Below, piece after piece: positions 1 through 10,939 of a stretch of DNA of 10,939 bases. Where the stretch lies: contig JAJHRM010000068.1 of NCBI GenBank assembly GCA_020832965.1, positions 1-10,939 of the forward strand, in the 5' to 3' direction. This DNA is from Thermofilum sp. Lineage in GTDB: Archaea > Thermoproteota > Thermoprotei > Thermofilales > Thermofilaceae. Position numbers and translations under genes: made by a program. The notes below the pieces were generated by a model. That model saw nothing but the letters and a program-made list of their open reading frames with translations, was not told the DNA's origin and searched no databases. Within the stretch, counting starts at the first letter, position 1; every line of letters begins with the position of its first letter.

Positions 1-165
1 CGATAATATCAGAAGGAAGAATTCTCGCCATCGACACCATCGATGAACTGAAGAAAAGGGTTGCAGACACAGTCTTCATAGAGGTACGACTACCAAGCAT
101 GTCGGGACTACAGGCACTAAACATCCTCAAAGATTTTCCAAGCAACGAGGTAAAAATCTACCACA
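1..165 (+). pseudogene. ABC exporter ATPase, internal/C-terminal fragment cut at a GC decamer
   Basis: Reading from base 3, 54 codons align without gaps to codons 221-274 (7180-7341) of the intact ABC exporter ATPase later in this window. 40 of the 54 residues are identical, including the stretch ADTVFIEVRLPS, and most changes are conservative. This is the post-H-loop region of a DrrA/NatA-type ATPase. The nucleotide match is much weaker at third codon positions, so this is an old paralogue rather than a recent duplication. Homology stops after the Tyr-His at 159-164, exactly where GCGCGCGCGC begins. The last ~58 residues expected from the paralogue are absent. The frame continues open to 548 but that extension is unrelated, being antisense to glpA. 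The gene enters from the left edge, so its Walker motifs cannot be seen. It is a real gene remnant, or half of a chimeric join. Confidence 0.8.
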
Positions 166-491
166 GCGCGCGCGCACTTCTTCAAAAAGAAGTCCTTATA
201 CTTCAAGTCCGACTCGTCTATAGCAACAAAGAGCCCACCATTCTTCTCAAACAAAAAAGGTGCAATCTTCCTCAAAACAACATTCTCCGAATAACACTCC
301 CTAGCAACCTCTACATCGGCGACGTACCTGCAGCCACTATGCAGAAGTCCATGCGTCCTTCCACTTGTACCACTGCCAATAGAGCCACGTTCAAGCAACG
401 TAACCTTAGCTCCACGCTGGGCAAGGTCGTAAGCAACTGCAGCACCAGTAATACCTCCGCCAATGACTACTACGTGTTTCAGCAAGCTCAC
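117..491 (-). CDS. glpA: Anaerobic glycerol-3-phosphate dehydrogenase (GlpA-like), 3'-truncated
   Basis: This is the N-terminal FAD-binding part of a GlpA/GlpD-type glycerol-3-phosphate dehydrogenase, which oxidises sn-glycerol-3-phosphate to dihydroxyacetone phosphate at the membrane. The dinucleotide-binding motif VVIGGGITGAAVAYDLAQRG is at residues 8-27. The GlpA hallmark TSGRTHGLLHSGCRYV, then ARECYSEN and GGLFVAIDE, follow E. coli GlpA in order. Homology ends at LKKC (about residue 105, base ~176) at GCGCGCGCGC; the remaining ~19 residues to the stop at 117 are antisense to the ABC fragment and not glpA-like. Full-length GlpA is 400-550 residues, so substrate-site and C-terminal domains are missing and the product should be inactive. 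The GTG start at 489-491 puts the glycine motif at the expected distance, and a TATA-like box (515-522) lies ~27 bases upstream. The family is clear; the truncation is either real or an assembly artefact. Confidence 0.85.
   Translation of the reverse strand: MSLLKHVVVIGGGITGAAVAYDLAQRGAKVTLLERGSIGSGTSGRTHGLLHSGCRYVADVEVARECYSENVVLRKIAPFLFEKNGGLFVAIDESDLKYKDFFLKKCARAVVDFYLVAWKIFEDV
166..175. repeat. GCGCGCGCGC decamer at gene-gene junction 1
   Basis: Ten bases of perfectly alternating G and C, self-complementary. They separate a truncated ABC ATPase (left) from a truncated glpA (right). An identical decamer at 1489-1498 sits at a second junction of two truncated genes. Possible readings are a deletion or recombination scar at a Z-DNA-prone (GC)5 tract, a recombinase site, or a ligation or assembly mis-join. 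Confidence 0.85.
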
Positions 492-514
492 TCAAGAAGC
501 GCCTATATGAATAA

Positions 515-522
515 TATAAAAA
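515..522 (-). promoter_or_regulatory. TATA-like box for the glpA fragment
   Basis: On the minus strand this reads TTTTTATA in a very A+T-rich stretch. Its centre is about 27 bases before the GTG at 491, the spacing expected for a leaderless archaeal transcript. Assigned by position and composition only. Confidence 0.45.
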
Positions 523-613
523 CCTTGTTAAAAAATATAGATTTTTAATAATTTTAAGTATATGCAGTCTTGAAGCAGATCAATCTCAGACGGAGACCCA
601 GTACGCTTCAATT

Positions 614-634
614 CCTTCTTAATCCATTAGAAGG
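614..634. other. Inverted repeat CCTTCT-N9-AGAAGG between the HAD and glpA genes
   Basis: Perfect 6-bp arms (614-619 and 629-634) with a 9-base loop, in the 219-base gap between the HAD stop (711) and the glpA start (491). It could be a termination or processing hairpin, or an operator. The rest of the gap (about 535-680) shows no gene or RNA that I recognise. Confidence 0.3.
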
Positions 635-684
635 CCGCTTTAGCAGTAAGGATGTTTATTGACAGCATAGTAAGCCTTCCTTGG

Positions 685-707
685 CTTAAGAAAATAAAAT
701 ACTTAAG
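685..707 (-). terminator. U-rich terminator after the HAD phosphatase
   Basis: Directly after the HAD stop codon (711-713), the minus strand reads CTTAAG, then TATTTTATTTT, then CTTAAG. The arms (685-690, 702-707) can pair around a T-rich loop. The T-rich tract fits archaeal intrinsic termination, which depends on U-runs more than on hairpins. Confidence 0.45.
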
Positions 708-710
708 AGC

Positions 711-1490
711 TCAGATGCATTCAAGGTTCTCGGAAGAGGAGCACATAGCACCTAATGCATCAAGCAGGTCACATAGATCCTTAAAGACTAAAATTCTTTT
801 CTCTTGCAAAGCAACATCACTGATCAAATCTTGGAGTGTAGCTTCACCACTTAACACTAAAATTGGAATAGCATTGCTCTCTACAGCCATTCTTATATCT
901 GTATAAATTCTATCACCAATATAGCAAACTTCTCTTGTGCTAACATTATTTTTTAAAGAAATTTCAATCAGCATTTCTGAAGAAGGCTTACCTAAAATTG
1001 CAATGGGCCTGGTTCCAGTTGTCAACTCTATTGCTTTACCTATGCTTCCTGCGTCCGGAAGATACCCCGCCTCAGCAGGGCAGCGAAGATCTGGATGTAC
1101 CAGCACCCAGGGCACTCCTTTTTGTATAAAGATACAGGCATCTGCAAGCTTAGAGTAGGTAAGCTCTTTATCAAAACCTACAACAACTAGTCTAGGTGAT
1201 TTGTCACTAAACTTTACACCATATTTGTGATGAAGATACCTTTTAGAACTCCGCGTAAGTAAAGGAAAAACGTTTTCTATCATGCCGTGTTTCTTTAAGT
1301 AGTTCCCAAGATGGTCAAGTGAGCTGTAAATCTCGTCAGCAGTAATTTTAATTCCTAAGATGCGGGAAAGATTCTTCGCATGTTTCTCATTTGGCTCAGA
1401 GGAATTATTTGTCACAATAACGAATCTGCGATTGCTCCTCCTCATATACTCGATAAGTTCACGTGCACAACTGAGAGGCTTGTTCCCAGC
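711..1490 (-). CDS. HAD-IIA (NagD/AraL-type) phosphatase, 5'-truncated
   Basis: Members of this HAD subfamily dephosphorylate small sugar or polyol phosphates such as glycerol phosphates and p-nitrophenyl phosphate. Visible motifs are motif II VIVTNNSSEPNEKHA, motif III lysine in ILGKPSSEM, and motif IV CYIGDRIYTDIRMA, with a cap domain between II and III containing VVVGFDKELTYSKLADA. The first in-frame ATG is at 1445, but homology continues upstream through GNKPLSCARELIEY to base ~1487. There the normal preceding segment carrying the nucleophile (DxDGV..R) is replaced by the GCGCGCGCGC decamer. Motif I with both catalytic aspartates, about 15-20 residues, is therefore missing and the product should be inactive. 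The U-rich terminator follows immediately. Lying beside glpA on the same strand, it may have acted on glycerol-3-phosphate; that is inference from context. Confidence 0.85.
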   Translation of the reverse strand, partial: AGNKPLSCARELIEYMRRSNRRFVIVTNNSSEPNEKHAKNLSRILGIKITADEIYSSLDHLGNYLKKHGMIENVFPLLTRSSKRYLHHKYGVKFSDKSPRLVVVGFDKELTYSKLADACIFIQKGVPWVLVHPDLRCPAEAGYLPDAGSIGKAIELTTGTRPIAILGKPSSEMLIEISLKNNVSTREVCYIGDRIYTDIRMAVESNAIPILVLSGEATLQDLISDVALQEKRILVFKDLCDLLDALGAMCSSSENLECI

Positions 1491-1498
1491 GCGCGCGC
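1489..1498. repeat. GCGCGCGCGC decamer at gene-gene junction 2
   Basis: Second perfect copy of the alternating GC decamer. It separates the 5'-truncated HAD gene (minus strand) from a 5'-truncated ABC permease (plus strand). Both genes have coding homology up to the edge of the tract, so no promoter or intergenic DNA remains between two divergent genes. Confidence 0.85.
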
Positions 1499-2196: not shown

Positions 2197-3291
2197 ATGA
2201 GTATGAGGCAAGAATTTGTCAAATTAGTAAAAGTGGTTAAAACCTTTAAGAAGGTAACAGCTGTAGCAGGGGTCTCTCTATCAGTAAATAAGGGCGAACT
2301 AGTAACTCTTTTAGGTCCTAGCGGTTGCGGAAAAACCACTACTCTTCGTTTAATTGCCGGGCTAGAGATACCTGATTCTGGTGAAATCTACATAGATGAC
2401 TTGCTTGTTTCAGCGCCGGAAAAAGGTATATTTGTTCCTCCGCACAAAAGAGGAATAGGCATGGTTTTTCAGAATTATGCCGTCTGGCCGCACATGACTG
2501 TTTTTGACAATATTGCCTATGGATTAAAGATTCAAAGGTTGTCCAAAGACGAGATTTCTAGAAGAGTAAAAGAAGTGTTAGAACTTATCGGTCTTAGTGG
2601 CTTGGAAGACAGGTATCCTACACAGCTAAGTGGAGGGCAACAGCAAAGAGTAGCTTTAGCTAGGGCTCTCATTACTAGACCTCAACTATTGTTGCTTGAT
2701 GAGCCTCTAAGCAATCTCGATGCAAAGTTACGCGAACGAATGAGGTTCGAAATTAGAAGCCTTGTAAAGAATCTCGGACTAACTGCGATCTACGTTACAC
2801 ATGATCAAGCAGAGGCATTGGTCATCAGTGACCGGATAGTAGTCATGAATCATGGAAAGATCGAGCAAATAGGGAAACCTGAAGAAGTCTATAAAAACCC
2901 TGCAAACAGGTTTGTTGCCGATTTTATTGGTGTGGCAAACTTCATCCCTGTTACCGTGAAGAAAATTGCAGAAAACTTCCAGGGAATAGTTGTAACAGAG
3001 GATGGAAGTGTTATCAGGTGCACAGTTTCTTCTAGGCTCAAAGAGAACAACAAGGCATACTTACTAATTCGTCCCGAAGACATAGTCCTCTATAAAGATT
3101 CCCCACCTGGTGAGAATACTTTACAGGTCAAAGTTGTACATAGAGTGTATCTCGGAAACATTAACTACTACTGGCTAAATTATAACGACTTAGAATTTCG
3201 TGTCCAAACCTCTCCTGACTTTGAAGCTAATGAGGGTGAAAGAATATTCGCATTCCTGAAGCCGGACAAAGCTATCGCCTTACCGGAGTAG
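2197..3291 (+). CDS. ABC importer ATPase, FbpC/PotA/UgpC family
   Basis: This 364-residue cytoplasmic ATPase would power the adjacent permease. Walker A is GPSGCGKTT (residues 40-48), the Q-loop is MVFQNYAVWPHMTVFDN (from 89), the signature LSGGQQQRVALARAL (from 144), Walker B LLLLDEPLSNLD (163-174), the H-loop THDQAEAL (201-208). A C-terminal regulatory (TOBE-like) region from about residue 245 contains LLIRPEDIVLY. The phrase VWPHMTVFDN is closer to FbpC/AfuC-type than to MalK-type proteins, which usually have LYPHMTV. Length and motifs are normal, so this gene is intact, unlike its neighbours to the left. ATG 2197 follows a strong ribosome-binding site GAGGTGA (2184-2190) overlapping the permease stop, so the two genes are translated from one mRNA. 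Confidence 0.93.
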   Translation: MSMRQEFVKLVKVVKTFKKVTAVAGVSLSVNKGELVTLLGPSGCGKTTTLRLIAGLEIPDSGEIYIDDLLVSAPEKGIFVPPHKRGIGMVFQNYAVWPHMTVFDNIAYGLKIQRLSKDEISRRVKEVLELIGLSGLEDRYPTQLSGGQQQRVALARALITRPQLLLLDEPLSNLDAKLRERMRFEIRSLVKNLGLTAIYVTHDQAEALVISDRIVVMNHGKIEQIGKPEEVYKNPANRFVADFIGVANFIPVTVKKIAENFQGIVVTEDGSVIRCTVSSRLKENNKAYLLIRPEDIVLYKDSPPGENTLQVKVVHRVYLGNINYYWLNYNDLEFRVQTSPDFEANEGERIFAFLKPDKAIALPE

Positions 3292-3314
3292 CGACGCCTT
3301 GGAAGCACAGTTTC

Positions 3315-3340
3315 AATAAATAGTATTCAAGGGATTTATT
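3315..3340 (+). terminator. Possible terminator hairpin after the importer ATPase
   Basis: AATAAAT (3315-3321) and ATTTATT (3334-3340) are perfect 7-base arms with a 12-base loop, 24 bases after the ATPase stop. A T-run (GTTTTTAG) follows at about 3361-3368. The stem is entirely A/T and so weak at high temperature; the T-run may matter more. Confidence 0.3.
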
Positions 3341-3371
3341 CAGTAAACTTACTTAATTAGGTTTTTAGTAG

Positions 3372-3387
3372 CATGACACGCGTCATG
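3372..3387. other. Inverted repeat CATGAC-ACGC-GTCATG
   Basis: A perfect 6-bp inverted repeat around a 4-base centre, in the AT-rich gap between the importer ATPase and the plus-strand HAD gene. Dyads like this are typical of dimeric regulator sites, but there is no promoter close enough to assign it to, so its role is open. Confidence 0.3.
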
Positions 3388-3559
3388 AGGGTTGTCTTTG
3401 AGAGACCTTGCAGAATCTTTCTTTTTCATTCATGTAATGTTTTAGCTCAGGAAGTTTCTTCCTAAATTCCTCTCGGTCTTATCTTTCCTGTTCCACTGAA
3501 GCTTGTTCCACGGTTTCTAAATTTTTAACATGAAAACAGTTTTTATGGCTTCCACTGTA
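3383..3559 (-). pseudogene. Possible decayed coding remnant, unrecognised
   Basis: Within the 359-base gap 3292-3650, the minus strand has one frame that reads like protein except for a TAA at 3479-3481. Before it is NLETVEQASVEQER; after it is DREEFRKKLPELKHYMNEKE, then RFCKVSQ, ending at TGA 3383-3385. The charged, helix-like composition is unlike random AT-rich sequence, but I do not recognise a family and there is no start codon or ribosome-binding site. A decayed transposase or lost flanking gene is possible. The frame also overlaps the hairpins at 3372-3387 and 3449-3463 (AGGAAG-TTT-CTTCCT). It may equally be chance. Nothing else coding is seen in this gap. Confidence 0.2.
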
Positions 3560-3615
3560 CTAGCTTAAACATTGCCGGAGTTCGAGAGCTAATTACTTTG
3601 AAGTGTCGAGATAGA

Positions 3616-3621
3616 TTTAAA
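3616..3621 (+). promoter_or_regulatory. TATA-like box for the plus-strand HAD gene
   Basis: TTTAAA centred about 32 bases before ATG 3651, preceded by purine-rich GAGATAGA that could serve as a BRE. The spacing predicts a transcript starting within a few bases of the ATG, i.e. a leaderless or nearly leaderless mRNA. Confidence 0.45.
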
Positions 3622-3650
3622 GCCTAGTCTTCTTTTAGCTTTTGGTTCAC

Positions 3651-4376
3651 ATGAGTACTCTGGAAAGCATCATTAATAGTGCTAAGGTCTTCTCGTTCGA
3701 CATAGACGGCACGCTGATCGACAGCTACACTTACATGAGGGATGTCATCCAGATACTGCTTCTCTACTTGGGTGTCCCGGCAAGCATGCTTGAAATGCTG
3801 ACGGACGAGGTGTACAGGAGCTGGTACGAGCTCGAGAAAGAGGGGGTACTGGACTACGGCAAGTTCCACTACCTGCTCGAGGATTTTGCCAGAAAGCACT
3901 CGGTAAGTGTTCGTTACGACGTAGGGAGTTTTCAAGAGCTCCTCTTTGAAGCGAGGGTGAAGGGGTCCGAGCTCTGCAGGTGCGCAGTGAAGCTCCTGTC
4001 TGAGCTCAAGAAGAGGGGCAAAATCGTAGTCTCCGTCTCCGCGGGTGACGGTGTGCCGGGAATGAAGCATAAGAGGATCATTGAGAGCGGGCTTGCCCCC
4101 CTCTTCGACAGGATACTCGTTGTTCAAGAGGATGTCCCCTCAAGGGTGGAGGCGTGGATGAAGCTGGAGGAAGAATTCAAAACCCCCAGGGACGAGATAG
4201 TCCACGTAGATGACAGGCCCAGGCTTGCACTAGAGGCTTTTAACGCAGGCCTTAAAGCAATAGTCGTCAAGACAGGATTCTACGATCCTTACTTTAATTT
4301 ACCTGGCAGTATCCCAGCAGTGGACTCCCTCTGCACACTACTGGACATGGTTGTGAAGTTGCCGCTGAAGCAGTGA
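3651..4376 (+). CDS. HAD-superfamily phosphatase (HAD-IA-like), substrate unknown
   Basis: A 241-residue HAD hydrolase with all four motifs: motif I FSFDIDGTLIDS (Asp17 nucleophile and Asp19 acid/base), motif II VSVSAGDG with its serine, a motif III lysine around GMKHKR, and motif IV HVDDRPRLALEA. A helical cap-like insert lies between motifs I and II (about residues 25-110), as in the phosphoglycolate phosphatase/haloacid dehalogenase group. A TTG at 3642 would add three residues, but ATG 3651 fits the TATA-like box and gives the usual short lead-in to motif I. It is complete and unlike the truncated HAD-IIA gene at 711-1490; the two are not duplicates. It stands alone, 57 bases before the lysO-like gene, and could be co-transcribed with it. 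The substrate cannot be read from the sequence. Confidence 0.85.
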   Translation: MSTLESIINSAKVFSFDIDGTLIDSYTYMRDVIQILLLYLGVPASMLEMLTDEVYRSWYELEKEGVLDYGKFHYLLEDFARKHSVSVRYDVGSFQELLFEARVKGSELCRCAVKLLSELKKRGKIVVSVSAGDGVPGMKHKRIIESGLAPLFDRILVVQEDVPSRVEAWMKLEEEFKTPRDEIVHVDDRPRLALEAFNAGLKAIVVKTGFYDPYFNLPGSIPAVDSLCTLLDMVVKLPLKQ

Positions 4377-5321: not shown

Positions 5322-6399
5322 ATGAAGAGGCTATACGTCCTGCCATTTGCACTATCCTTCCTGCAAGGTCTTCTAGTCCCTTTGGTCGTCCTCTACATGC
5401 TAAAGCTAGGCTACGGAGAGGCAGAGATAGGCATCGTGACTGGATCATCCTCACTCCTGTACATCACTGGTGCACTGCTGTCATCCTTCCTTGTGAGCAA
5501 GCTCGGCGACTCGAGAACGTTATCACTCTCACTCAGCCTCATTGGAGCAGGATACATAGCCCTCCCCCTCTCCCGAACCATTCCAGCCATATTCTCGGCG
5601 GTCAGCCTAGTCCTCTTGGGATTCGGCGTATTCTGGCCATCAATCGAGAACGCAGTTTCAAGCAGCGGTGGACAAGTATCCTCCTTCTCCTTCTCCTGGA
5701 GTTCAGGCTCCCTCCTAGCAATGGCATCCGTCTACCCAGCCTCCTTGATAGAGCCGAAACTAGCATTCCTCCTTTTTGCGGCGTCTTCCCTGCTCTTAAC
5801 CCCTCTGGCCAGATTCGGCTCAGTGAGGAACATTAAGCCTGCATCAATCAGCAGAGTTTTAGCATCAGTTAGGAGGGCGGCTCTAGCTTGGATTCTCTGC
5901 ATCACATACTCGACAAACTCCGCTGGACTAATCACCTTCTATCCCATACTCGTGGAAGAGAAGGGGATGCCGCCCATCATGCTCTCGGCAACACTCTTCA
6001 CAATGATTTTTTCCAGGACGACTCTTTTTTACCTGTACGAGAGGATTCCCGTGAAGCTTCGAAGACCGGACATCGCCTCGCCTCTGATGCTTGCCCCGGC
6101 CCTCATAGCGTACACGAGAAACCCCCTCTCCCACATAGTTCTAGCCCTCTTTTCAGGTTTAGGGCAGGGAATAGTGTACGGCAACGCTCTGGAGAGGGTA
6201 TTTAAGAGGGGGGGTCCTTGAAGTCCACCTATACACATCACTCTTTGAGTCATTTATCGGGGCAGGCTACTTCTTCGGACCAATAGTCGGAGTCACTTTT
6301 AGCAAATTGATACTGGTTCAACCAGTGGTTTCGACAGCCTTCATAAGTTTCCTTCTCACACTAGCTTCGTCCAAGCTCTCGCCGGAGGAGACGCGCTGA
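5322..6399 (+). CDS. MFS transporter, frame broken at a run of seven Gs
   Basis: A major-facilitator permease. ATG 5322 follows GAGG (5309-5312) at good spacing. Hydrophobic helices begin at once (LYVLPFALSFLQGLLVPLVV), with an MFS-like loop after helix 2 (SSFLVSKLGDSRTLSL) and a glycine/tryptophan-rich helix LGFGVFWPSIENAVSS. The original frame stops at TGA 6219-6221 after 299 residues, at FKRGGP. Removing one G from the run 6208-6214 restores the frame: FKRGVLEVHLYTSLFESFIG, then AGYFFGPIVGV and a last helix to TGA 6397-6399. That is a normal MFS ending and gives 358 residues. The total of 1078 bases is one more than a multiple of three, fitting a single extra base. Sequencing error, phase variation, slippage or a true pseudogene are all possible. 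The substrate is unknown; the LysO neighbour suggests metabolite efflux. Confidence 0.85.
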
Positions 6400-6420
6400 G
6401 AAGCTCACGCACTTGAAAAA

Positions 6421-6519: not shown

Positions 6520-7518
6520 ATGTACCCAGTAGAGGTACACAACCTCAGGAAGACGTACGTAACGAGGAAGCGAATAGGCTTGTTTAAGACAGTTGAGAGT
6601 AGAGTAGAGGCATTAAGGGGGGTTTCCTTCACAGTCAACGAGGGCGAGATTCTGGGAATACTGGGTCCTAATGGCGCTGGAAAGTCCACATTGGTTAAAA
6701 TACTGGCCACCCTTCTGCTCCCAGATGAAGGTTACGCTAAAATTCTCGGTCACGACATTGTCGAGGAGAGAAGCACAGTGAGAAAGCTCATAGGAATCTC
6801 TCTAAGCGTGGAGAAAGGCTTCTTCTATAAACTCACTGCTAGGGAAAACCTAAAGTACTTCGGCATGCTCTACGGTTTAAGCGGGGGGAAACTCGAAGAA
6901 AGGGTGAGCGAAGCTCTTAAAGCAGTTGGGCTGCAAAACCTTGCCGACAAGTTTTACGAAGAAATGTCCCTGGGAATGAAGGCGAGGCTCAGCATAGCTA
7001 GATCCCTGCTCCTAGACCCGCCAGTCCTCATATTGGACGAGCCAACCCTTGGCTTAGACCCCGTAACCTCCAGGAAAATTAGACAACTACTAGTAAACTT
7101 AGCCCACCAGAAGCGCAAGTCCGTGCTCATAACAACGCATAACCTGTTTGAGGCAGAGCTAATATGTGACAGGGTTGCAATTTTGTCGGAGGGAAAAATA
7201 CTGGCAATAGACACCGTTGATGATCTTAAGAAGCGCATAGCGGACACGGTTTTCATCGAAGTTAGGCTCCCCAGCGTCTCAAGCCTCCAGGCACTAAACC
7301 TGCTCAGGAGCTTTCCAAGCAGCGAGATTAGAGTCTATCACAAGAAGGGCGTCGCCGAGAAAATCGTCCTCTCGGTACCCGTATCGCAAGCCGAGGAGAT
7401 CATGGAGAAGCTACTCCACGAAGTTAAGGCATCAAAACTAAAGGTTAGAAGCATTAGCGTGCTTGAGCCAACGCTTGAGGATGTATTCGTAAAGCTGACG
7501 GGTCACAGGGGTGTCTAG
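6520..7518 (+). CDS. ABC-2 type exporter ATPase (DrrA/NatA family)
   Basis: A 332-residue ATPase of a drug, bacteriocin or sodium-type exporter. It has Walker A GPNGAGKST (residues 49-57), the family-typical signature MSLGMKARLSIARSL (149-163) in place of LSGGQ, Walker B LILDEPTLGLDP (170-181) and H-loop TTHNL (205-209). A C-terminal extension of ~100 residues ends with the DrrA-like LEPTLEDVFVKLTG. The usual Q-loop glutamine after IGISLSVEKG is not obvious, so coupling to the permease may be unusual. ATG 6520 follows a strong GGTGG. The stop overlaps the next gene by 8 bases. Residues 221-274 match the fragment at the left edge of the window (40/54 identical), so the organism carries at least one diverged paralogue. 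The exported substrate is unknown. Confidence 0.92.
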   Translation: MYPVEVHNLRKTYVTRKRIGLFKTVESRVEALRGVSFTVNEGEILGILGPNGAGKSTLVKILATLLLPDEGYAKILGHDIVEERSTVRKLIGISLSVEKGFFYKLTARENLKYFGMLYGLSGGKLEERVSEALKAVGLQNLADKFYEEMSLGMKARLSIARSLLLDPPVLILDEPTLGLDPVTSRKIRQLLVNLAHQKRKSVLITTHNLFEAELICDRVAILSEGKILAIDTVDDLKKRIADTVFIEVRLPSVSSLQALNLLRSFPSSEIRVYHKKGVAEKIVLSVPVSQAEEIMEKLLHEVKASKLKVRSISVLEPTLEDVFVKLTGHRGV

Positions 7519-8303: not shown

Positions 8304-9053
8304 TTGGGAAAAATTAGAGCCATTATTTGGCTGCACACACTGAGAACAAGGAGGTACTTCCTGTCCATGGCTTCAGGCTCACTAACAGACACACTCTGGA
8401 TAATTACCCTACTCCTGGGCTTCACACTTACTGGTAAAACACACCTCCTGCCAGAGAACTTCCTCGGACTCGTTGCATGGACAATTGCTTCAAACGCTAC
8501 GTGGATGATTGGTGGGTGGGTAGACTACCTAAGCGTTCTGGGGCTCATAGAGGAGCACGAAGCCAGAGGAACCCATCTCCTCCTCGTTTTAGCGGGGCGA
8601 GTCATCCCCCTGCTTACAACTTCAGCAATAACTTCCCTGCTTACGCTACTATTCCTCAAGATCATCGGGCTGGAAATTCCTGCACTCTACCCCACCTACA
8701 CGATCGCCTCTCTGTGCATTCTGCTTATACAGTCAGTTGAGTACGGACTGCTGCTTGCAAACCTAGCGCTAAAAACCGGCGTACCAGGCTACATGCTTGA
8801 CATAGCAAGCCTAGCATTCCTAGGTCTAGCCATAATGCCCGTAGAAGAAAACCGGCTGAGGTTACTCGCCCCTGTCCCTCTCCTGGGACCAATGCTTGCT
8901 GCAAAAGCTTCCAGCAAACAACCAGTGAATAGCGATGTGCTAGCATCTCTCCTGCTGTCAACCCTGTTAGTAACGTTTGTCCTACTAGCTGCGAGTAAGA
9001 AAGTTATGAGTGATGCGCGAAGAAGAGGAATAAAAACTATTGGCGAGGTTTAA
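8304..9053 (+). CDS. ABC-2 type exporter permease, second subunit
   Basis: A 249-residue membrane protein with about six hydrophobic stretches, such as LLTTSAITSLLTLLFLKIIG and LASLLLSTLLVTFVLLAA. The sequence is more divergent than the first permease; ABC-2 identity rests on size, helix pattern and operon position. The TTG start at 8304 is one base after the previous stop, with a GAGGGG ribosome-binding site at 8290-8295. The N-terminus (GKIRAIIWLHTLRTRRYFLS) is a basic amphipathic lead before the first helix, as in other ABC-2 subunits. The operon ends here; the next gene converges from the other strand with 43 bases between. Confidence 0.75.
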   Translation: MGKIRAIIWLHTLRTRRYFLSMASGSLTDTLWIITLLLGFTLTGKTHLLPENFLGLVAWTIASNATWMIGGWVDYLSVLGLIEEHEARGTHLLLVLAGRVIPLLTTSAITSLLTLLFLKIIGLEIPALYPTYTIASLCILLIQSVEYGLLLANLALKTGVPGYMLDIASLAFLGLAIMPVEENRLRLLAPVPLLGPMLAAKASSKQPVNSDVLASLLLSTLLVTFVLLAASKKVMSDARRRGIKTIGEV

Positions 9054-10517: not shown

Positions 10518-10939
10518 TCAGTCTTTCTCTGAAGTAGCGCGCAGCGCGCGCCACTCCTTACCCCGCCTTTTCGCAGGGGTTATGAGTTTTACTCCGCCGG
10601 GTGTCGCCAGGAAGCTGAGCACCCTGATCTGCTTCGGTAGCTCTGCCTTTATGCCCAGCGCCTTTAGCCCCCTAGCCATTACACCCAAGCCACCGTTCAC
10701 GTCGCTGTGCATCGTGTGCCCGTGTGGGCAGCGGATGAGCCCTCTGGGCTTCCTCAAGACCTCGCAGCCGTGGTACGCGCACTTCCTCGATGTGCCGTCC
10801 TCGCTGACAGCAAACACAGGTATGCCAGCGTTCTCCAGCGTCGTTGCGAGCCTCATCAGCTGCCTCCGCTGACCCCACATGTTCACGTTGCCCTTCCCAG
10901 GCTTCTCCTGCGATATGTACCATGGGTATCCTATGAAGA
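10518..10939 (-). mobile_element. tnpB: TnpB (IS200/IS605-family OrfB) nuclease, C-terminal part, runs off right edge
   Basis: The open frame continues to the window edge (first visible residues FIGYPWYISQEKPGKGN), so this is the 3' end of a longer gene; full TnpB is ~370-430 residues. It shows the zinc-ribbon region TSRKCAYHGCEV ... IRCPHGH, with Cys-x2-His pairs as seen in archaeal TnpBs rather than four cysteines, and the RuvC-III acidic site HSDVNGG. A basic tail PAKRRGKEWRALRATSEKD ends at TGA 10518. TnpB is an RNA-guided DNA nuclease carried by IS605-type elements; its guide (omega) RNA usually overlaps the 3' end of the gene. The 3' end here is strongly GC-alternating (10537-10551). 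No tnpA is visible, and whether the element is complete cannot be judged. Confidence 0.88.
10537..10551 (-). other. GC hairpin inside the tnpB 3' end
   Basis: On the minus strand GCGCGC, a three-base loop GCT, then GCGCGC: a perfect 6-bp G/C stem inside the last codons of tnpB. It could be part of the omega-RNA scaffold or of the element's right end. The tract stays in frame and encodes a plausible TnpB tail, so it need not be a junction like the decamers at 166 and 1489. Confidence 0.4.

What the first reader, a model, noticed from the sequence alone, without database searches (positions are those of the whole stretch)
166..1498. Two identical GCGCGCGCGC decamers, each joining two truncated unrelated genes
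A perfect (GC)5 tract is very unlikely by chance in DNA this A+T-rich, yet it occurs twice, and both times homology of the genes on either side stops at the tract. Four genes are cut: an ABC ATPase, glpA, a HAD phosphatase and an ABC permease. Options: (1) deletions or exchanges at Z-DNA-forming GC tracts; (2) a site-specific rearrangement system using a 10-bp palindrome, with missing gene parts next to other copies; (3) artefact, since blunt joining of two filled-in GCGCGC ends gives exactly this decamer, and an assembler could also join contigs ending in GC tracts. The artefact is a serious contender; the biological version would be new.
Basis: partly seen in the sequence, partly recalled or inferred. 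Interest (0 to 1): 0.75.

Follow-up and report, generated by a model that had tools for sequence, protein, structure and literature searches.

The report
Probable false joins in archaeal contig
Two identical GCGCGCGCGC stretches join broken pieces of unrelated genes in a Thermofilum-like archaeal contig, and because an intact copy of one broken gene lacks the stretch, they look like cloning or assembly scars rather than a new DNA-rearranging system.

Summary
GCGCGCGCGC occurs exactly twice, at 166-175 and 1489-1498, where 0.002-0.01 copies are expected, and gene homology ends at or next to the tract on the three sides that could be tested. The decisive new evidence is an intact HAD-IIA phosphatase, P0004. 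It equals the window's HAD fragment over 258 of 258 residues, but where P0004 reads ...MDGTLILGNKPL... the window reads ...ARAGNKPL.... So the tract is foreign to the HAD gene. None of the 25 closest GlpA relatives has the alanine that the tract encodes after the conserved cysteine, and the drrA fragment stops matching its in-window paralogue at base 165. The permease side could not be tested. This removes recombination between pre-existing GC tracts, and BssHII cut, fill-in and ligation, as explanations of junction 2. What is left is a fixed-length palindromic filler between unrelated gene interiors, most simply a library or assembly chimera. The technical source was not identified. No reads or whole genome were available. 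A real rearrangement with 10-nt filler remains possible but improbable. I score this low, as not a real biological feature.

The parts
1..165 (+). Internal piece of a DrrA-type ABC ATPase gene (54 codons, 3-164); cut at its 3' side by the first decamer
   Evidence: 71% identical over 157 nt to 7186-7342, inside the intact ATPase 6520-7518; the match ends at base 165
166..175 (.). First GCGCGCGCGC decamer, junction 1 (palindromic)
   Evidence: exact match; up to 3 bases at its right end could be native to glpA (inference from a TGC codon followed by G)
176..491 (-). 5' part (105 codons) of a glpA-type FAD-dependent glycerol-3-phosphate dehydrogenase gene
   Evidence: TIGR03377 positions 1-100 of 530, below its cut-off; closest relative P0054, 94% identical over the arm, 384 aa
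711..1488 (-). HAD-IIA phosphatase gene lacking its N-terminal part, including the DMDGT stretch present in the intact copy (catalytic motif, name recalled)
   Evidence: PF13344/PF13242; identical to P0004 over 258 of 258 residues from GNKPL on
1489..1498 (.). Second GCGCGCGCGC decamer, junction 2
   Evidence: exact match; not encoded by the intact HAD copy P0004
1499..2185 (+). BPD_transp_1 ABC permease, probably lacking its 5' part
   Evidence: PF00528; WtpB model matched from position 46 of 251, PhnU2 from 336 of 546, ModB from 3 of 208
2197..3291 (+). ABC ATPase with TOBE domain, best NCBIfam match PhnT2 (below its cut-off)
6520..7518 (+). Intact DrrA-type ATPase, paralogue or orthologue of the piece at 1-165
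10537..10551 (.). Third GC-rich tract, GCGCGCAGCGCGCGC, near the 3' end of a TnpB-type frame; no gene shown to be cut
   Evidence: the best plasmid TnpB match (Saccharolobus) covers residues 1-110 of 139, short of the tract

Best explanation
The two decamers are scars of false joins. Pieces of archaeal DNA that are not neighbours in nature were put end to end during library making or assembly, with the same 10-nt palindromic filler at both joints. Shown: the tract is not native to the HAD gene, and HAD and GlpA homologues run through the breakpoints. Inferred: the tract is not native to glpA or drrA either, and the cause is technical. The exact source is unknown. It could be a ligated double-stranded linker, an untemplated tail amplified early, or a software join at the shortest allowed overlap.
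For: An intact HAD copy, P0004 (280 aa, cluster of 4 sequences on 3 contigs, longest 350,926 bp), equals the window piece over 258 of 258 residues and departs where the decamer begins. The 4 other HAD homologues in that alignment also have Leu-Gly there. In 25 of the 25 closest GlpA relatives the residue after the conserved Cys is not Ala, which the decamer encodes, and after that Cys the window's frame runs into 18 residues that the 12 aligned relatives do not share as a stretch. Two unrelated junctions carry the same 10 nt, expected 0.002-0.01 times per window. The filler is its own reverse complement, as a blunt linker or a shared overlap would allow. The chimeric glpA frame (124 aa) was not found as such: of 38 hits none covers more than 93% of it, the two at 93% are 53% identical, and the best is a 103-aa partial glpA. 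The contig has other oddities: a frame break at a G-run in the MFS gene and a sharp base-composition step near 3,600-3,700.
Against: No reads, coverage or whole genome could be examined. No linker or adaptor equal to GCGCGCGCGC turned up in two literature searches, listings only. P0004 was read as protein only, so a rare broken allele beside the intact one is not excluded. The window's chimeric ORF could have been absorbed into the 90% cluster of P0054, so its absence is weak. Decamers of this kind are natural in other genomes. Among 119 GlpA relatives read, 35 do have Ala at that position, so a native glpA tract is not strictly excluded.
Confidence: 0.8

Rival explanations
1. Real chromosomal rearrangements in this strain. 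Two double-strand breaks inside genes were repaired end to end with about 10 nt of added GC-alternating filler, leaving pseudogenes.
For: The pieces 3-164, 177-491, 714-1487, 1499-2182 and 2197-3288 have similar composition (GC3 0.35-0.48), so they may come from one genome; at least three genes are broken.
Against: Two independent repairs would have to add the same 10 nt. The HAD piece shows no decay: 258 of 258 residues equal the intact copy.
Confidence: 0.1
2. Breaks, in the cell or in the tube, at the edge of a native GC tract that lies on one side of each joint only (glpA at junction 1, the permease at junction 2). A Z-DNA or hairpin-forming tract blocks a polymerase, and the end is joined to unrelated DNA.
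For: Read in the glpA frame, the tract gives C-A-R-A, which fits the common C-x-x-A of the close relatives; Ala at the second position occurs in 35 of 119 relatives read. In the permease frame it gives R-A-R before YYTFEN.
Against: 0 of the 25 closest GlpA relatives has Ala at the second position. Two native decamers would be needed in a stretch of about 41% G+C where 0.002-0.01 are expected per window.
Confidence: 0.06
3. A site-specific recombination system that uses the 10-bp palindrome as its crossover site.
For: Two identical palindromic sites, each at a gene breakpoint.
Against: The intact HAD gene has no such site, so the site was not there before the event. No site-specific recombinase family came up for the window proteins scanned (9, 7, 5, partly the same; not every frame was scanned, and 8304-9053 matched no family). 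The KaiC-like ATPase has weak matches to RecA and RadB, below their cut-offs. The TnpB-type frame 9 kb away is not a known partner for such sites (recalled).
Confidence: 0.03
4. Proximity-ligation or restriction library product: BssHII-type ends (GCGCGC) filled in and joined blunt, which gives exactly this decamer.
For: The arithmetic fits exactly (cut position of BssHII recalled).
Against: Needs a native GCGCGC at every arm; the HAD arm encodes I-L there in the intact copy. The 8 papers shown of 48 on proximity ligation and fill-in hold no mention of BssHII (listing).
Confidence: 0.01

Closest known systems
Chimeric joints in sequencing libraries and metagenome assemblies (general class, recalled)
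   Same: Unrelated gene interiors abut, intact versions exist elsewhere, and the joint sequence is not native to at least one piece
   Different: The joint filler is the same 10-nt palindrome twice; no specific published source of that filler was found (listings)
Deletions and breaks at Z-DNA-forming GC repeats (recalled; listing only)
   Same: An alternating GC tract sits at each breakpoint
   Different: Such events start from a tract already present in the gene; the intact HAD copy has none
Site-specific recombination at short palindromes (invertases, integrons; recalled)
   Same: Identical short palindromes at two joints
   Different: No pre-existing site in the intact HAD gene, no reciprocal product seen, no site-specific recombinase recognised among the window proteins scanned

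Membership tests
Assembly or library chimera | Intact versions of the cut genes exist in the same kind of organism | tested here: met
   HAD: P0004, identical over 258 of 258 residues, intact; GlpA: P0054, 94% identical over the arm, full length
Assembly or library chimera | The joint sequence is not native to the pieces joined | tested here: inconclusive
   Met for HAD, likely for glpA and drrA, untested for the permease
Assembly or library chimera | Reads do not span the joint, or coverage changes there | not testable with these tools
   no reads; no genome held
Recombination at pre-existing GC/Z-DNA tracts | Tract present in the unrearranged gene | tested here: not met
   intact HAD copy encodes I-L-G where the window has R-A-G; other arms not settled
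Site-specific recombination system | Sites present before the exchange | tested here: not met
   site absent from intact HAD
Site-specific recombination system | Reciprocal products beside other copies of the site | not testable with these tools
   no genome held
Site-specific recombination system | A recombinase gene in the same genome | tested here: inconclusive
   no site-specific recombinase among the window proteins scanned; the rest of the genome was not available
BssHII fill-in ligation | Native GCGCGC at each joined end | tested here: not met
   HAD arm

The most novel reading that the evidence does not exclude
A thermophilic archaeon that rejoins broken chromosome ends with a fixed, untemplated (GC)5 filler, or that inserts a 10-bp palindrome at sites of programmed rearrangement. 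The intact HAD copy would be the unrearranged version in the same population.
Probability: 0.04. Interest if true: 0.75.

Novelty: not a real feature. Interest (0 to 1): 0.12.

Why it matters
If it is an artefact, as is likely, it matters as a warning. Apparent gene fusions and pseudogenes at identical short GC tracts in metagenome contigs should be checked against intact homologues before any biology is built on them. If it were real, a fixed untemplated filler at repair joints in an archaeon would be a new kind of end joining.

Tried and rejected
BssHII or Hi-C fill-in ligation was my first idea, since it gives exactly this decamer; the intact HAD protein excludes it at junction 2. Overlap joining by an assembler at (GC)5 ends needs the tract in both parents and fails at HAD unless the tip itself was an artefact. 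That some assemblers join tips at overlaps of about 10 nt is recalled and comes from no call.

A general (GC)5 artefact was tested in 36 bacterial genomes (36 of the 73 loci found; none is kin of the window's organism). 22 of 36 hold the decamer and 19 of 36 the reversed control; the sums are 201 decamers against 179 controls, overlapping copies counted apart. In the four genomes that had decamers but no control (7:0, 3:0, 1:0, 1:0), 12 of 12 sites lie inside a stop-to-stop frame of at least 159 codons (no homology test made). So the decamer looks ordinary in those genomes and no general artefact was seen.

Attempts to reach the organism's relatives failed. Genome contigs gave no relative of P0004, and with an alignment of 6 HAD proteins it gave 73 loci, all bacterial by their titles. 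The junction 1 sequence is absent from viral contigs, and the TnpB protein found no relative there. A search of plasmids with the DrrA protein hit the 5000-record limit with no match at 60% identity or more and told nothing. The plasmid of Thermofilum pendens has no decamer and could not serve as a centre for a genome search. Rfam found nothing in the window at gathering threshold. The drrA arm's own intact version was not listed among the best 120, which are FAD-dependent dehydrogenases by their Pfam domains.

Papers: all seen as search listings only; none was opened. 'GCGCGCGCGC' together with 'artifact' occurs in 1 paper, a Z-DNA structure review, PMC9867160. In one search the exact decamer had 0 occurrences in the 15 rows shown.

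Full report
The decamer GCGCGCGCGC occurs exactly twice in the window, at 166-175 and 1489-1498, and nowhere else. Dinucleotide shuffles give 0.01 copies on average, and 0 of 200 shuffles give two. Markov models of order 0 to 3, with the decamers left out, expect 0.002 to 0.007. In both places the base before it is A; the base after it is A at the first and T at the second.

The pieces that meet there are: an internal stretch of a DrrA-type ABC ATPase (1-165, +), the first 105 codons of a glpA-type dehydrogenase (about 176-491, -), a HAD-IIA phosphatase without its beginning (711 to about 1488, -), and an ABC permease followed by an ABC ATPase (1499-2185 and 2197-3291, +). The drrA piece matches the intact ATPase gene further on in the same window at 71% over 157 nt, and the match ends at base 165. 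The nearest named relatives are Thermofilum or Infirmifilum (names given by sources), so the organism is probably a member of the Thermofilaceae; this is inference.

An intact HAD protein, P0004, exists in public data (280 aa; cluster of 4 sequences on 3 contigs, longest 350,926 bp). It is identical to the window piece over 258 of 258 residues. It reads FVFDMDGTLILGNKPLSC where the window reads SARAGNKPLSC. The codon before GGG AAC AAG is GCT in the window and must be a leucine codon in the intact gene; the codon before that is CGC in the window and must encode isoleucine. So at most the last base before GGG can be native, and the decamer is foreign to this gene. The 4 other homologues in that alignment also have Leu-Gly there.

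For glpA, 119 of the 120 listed relatives could be read past the arm. The Cys right after FLKK is present in 98 of 119, and the window keeps it. The next residue is Glu in 44 and Ala in 35 of 119, but in the 25 closest relatives (one of them, P0072, a partial protein) it is never Ala, and the best relative, P0054, reads CEEAGIPV. The window reads CARAVVDF and then runs on into residues that do not fit the family. So the tract is probably foreign to glpA as well, with up to 3 bases possibly native, but this is less certain than for HAD. For the permease no intact relative was obtained; whether it is cut at all is an inference from family models.

What follows is mostly inference. If the tract is not in the parent gene at junction 2, recombination or breakage between pre-existing tracts in both parents cannot have made that joint, nor can filling-in and blunt joining of GCGCGC-cut ends. 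What is left is an added 10-nt palindrome of the same sequence and length at two joints between unrelated gene interiors. A technical origin explains this most simply: a linker, an amplified untemplated tail, or an assembly join. I could not identify which. The HAD piece has not decayed at all relative to the intact copy, which also fits a recent false join better than an old pseudogene.

Results against this reading: no reads and no genome were available. P0004 is a protein record, so a rare rearranged allele beside the intact one is possible. The chimeric glpA frame was not found as such among 38 hits, but a cluster at 90% identity may hide it, so that absence says little. A native tract on one side only (glpA at junction 1, the permease at junction 2) is not strictly excluded. 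The decamer is natural in many other genomes: 22 of 36 bacterial genomes have it, 201 copies against 179 of its reversed control, and 12 of 12 sites looked at lie in long open frames.

Two other features raise doubts about the contig. Coding GC3 is 0.35-0.48 for the five pieces up to 3288 and 0.50-0.75 for the nine frames from 3642 on, with the step near 3,600-3,700. The MFS gene changes frame at a run of seven G at 6208-6214: its reading frame stops at 6221, while another frame runs on to a stop at 6397-6399. The first could be horizontal transfer and the second a sequencing indel or a true mutation; neither was resolved.

The biological readings are unlikely, and the feature is most probably a pair of false joins. 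Confidence 0.8; interest 0.12.

Noticed in passing
window 3288-3700: Sharp composition step: coding GC3 0.35-0.48 before, 0.50-0.75 after. It could be another join or a horizontally acquired block; there is no GC decamer there.
   Followed up: partly
window 6195-6402: MFS transporter frame breaks at a run of seven G at 6208-6214; the C-terminal part continues in another frame.
   Followed up: partly
window 10537-10551: Third GC-rich tract, GCGCGCAGCGCGCGC, in the last codons of a TnpB-type frame, beside a KaiC-like ATPase gene. Not shown to be a breakpoint.
   Followed up: partly
window 1-165 and 7186-7342: Two DrrA-type ATPase genes or orthologues in one window, 71% identical at DNA level but with different GC3 (0.48 and 0.58), possibly from two related organisms.
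   Followed up: partly
P0180 (119 aa): A GlpA fragment from another source also leaves the family sequence right after the conserved Cys (FIDGCAKPVV...), close to the position where the window's glpA is cut. Its DNA was not seen.
   Followed up: no
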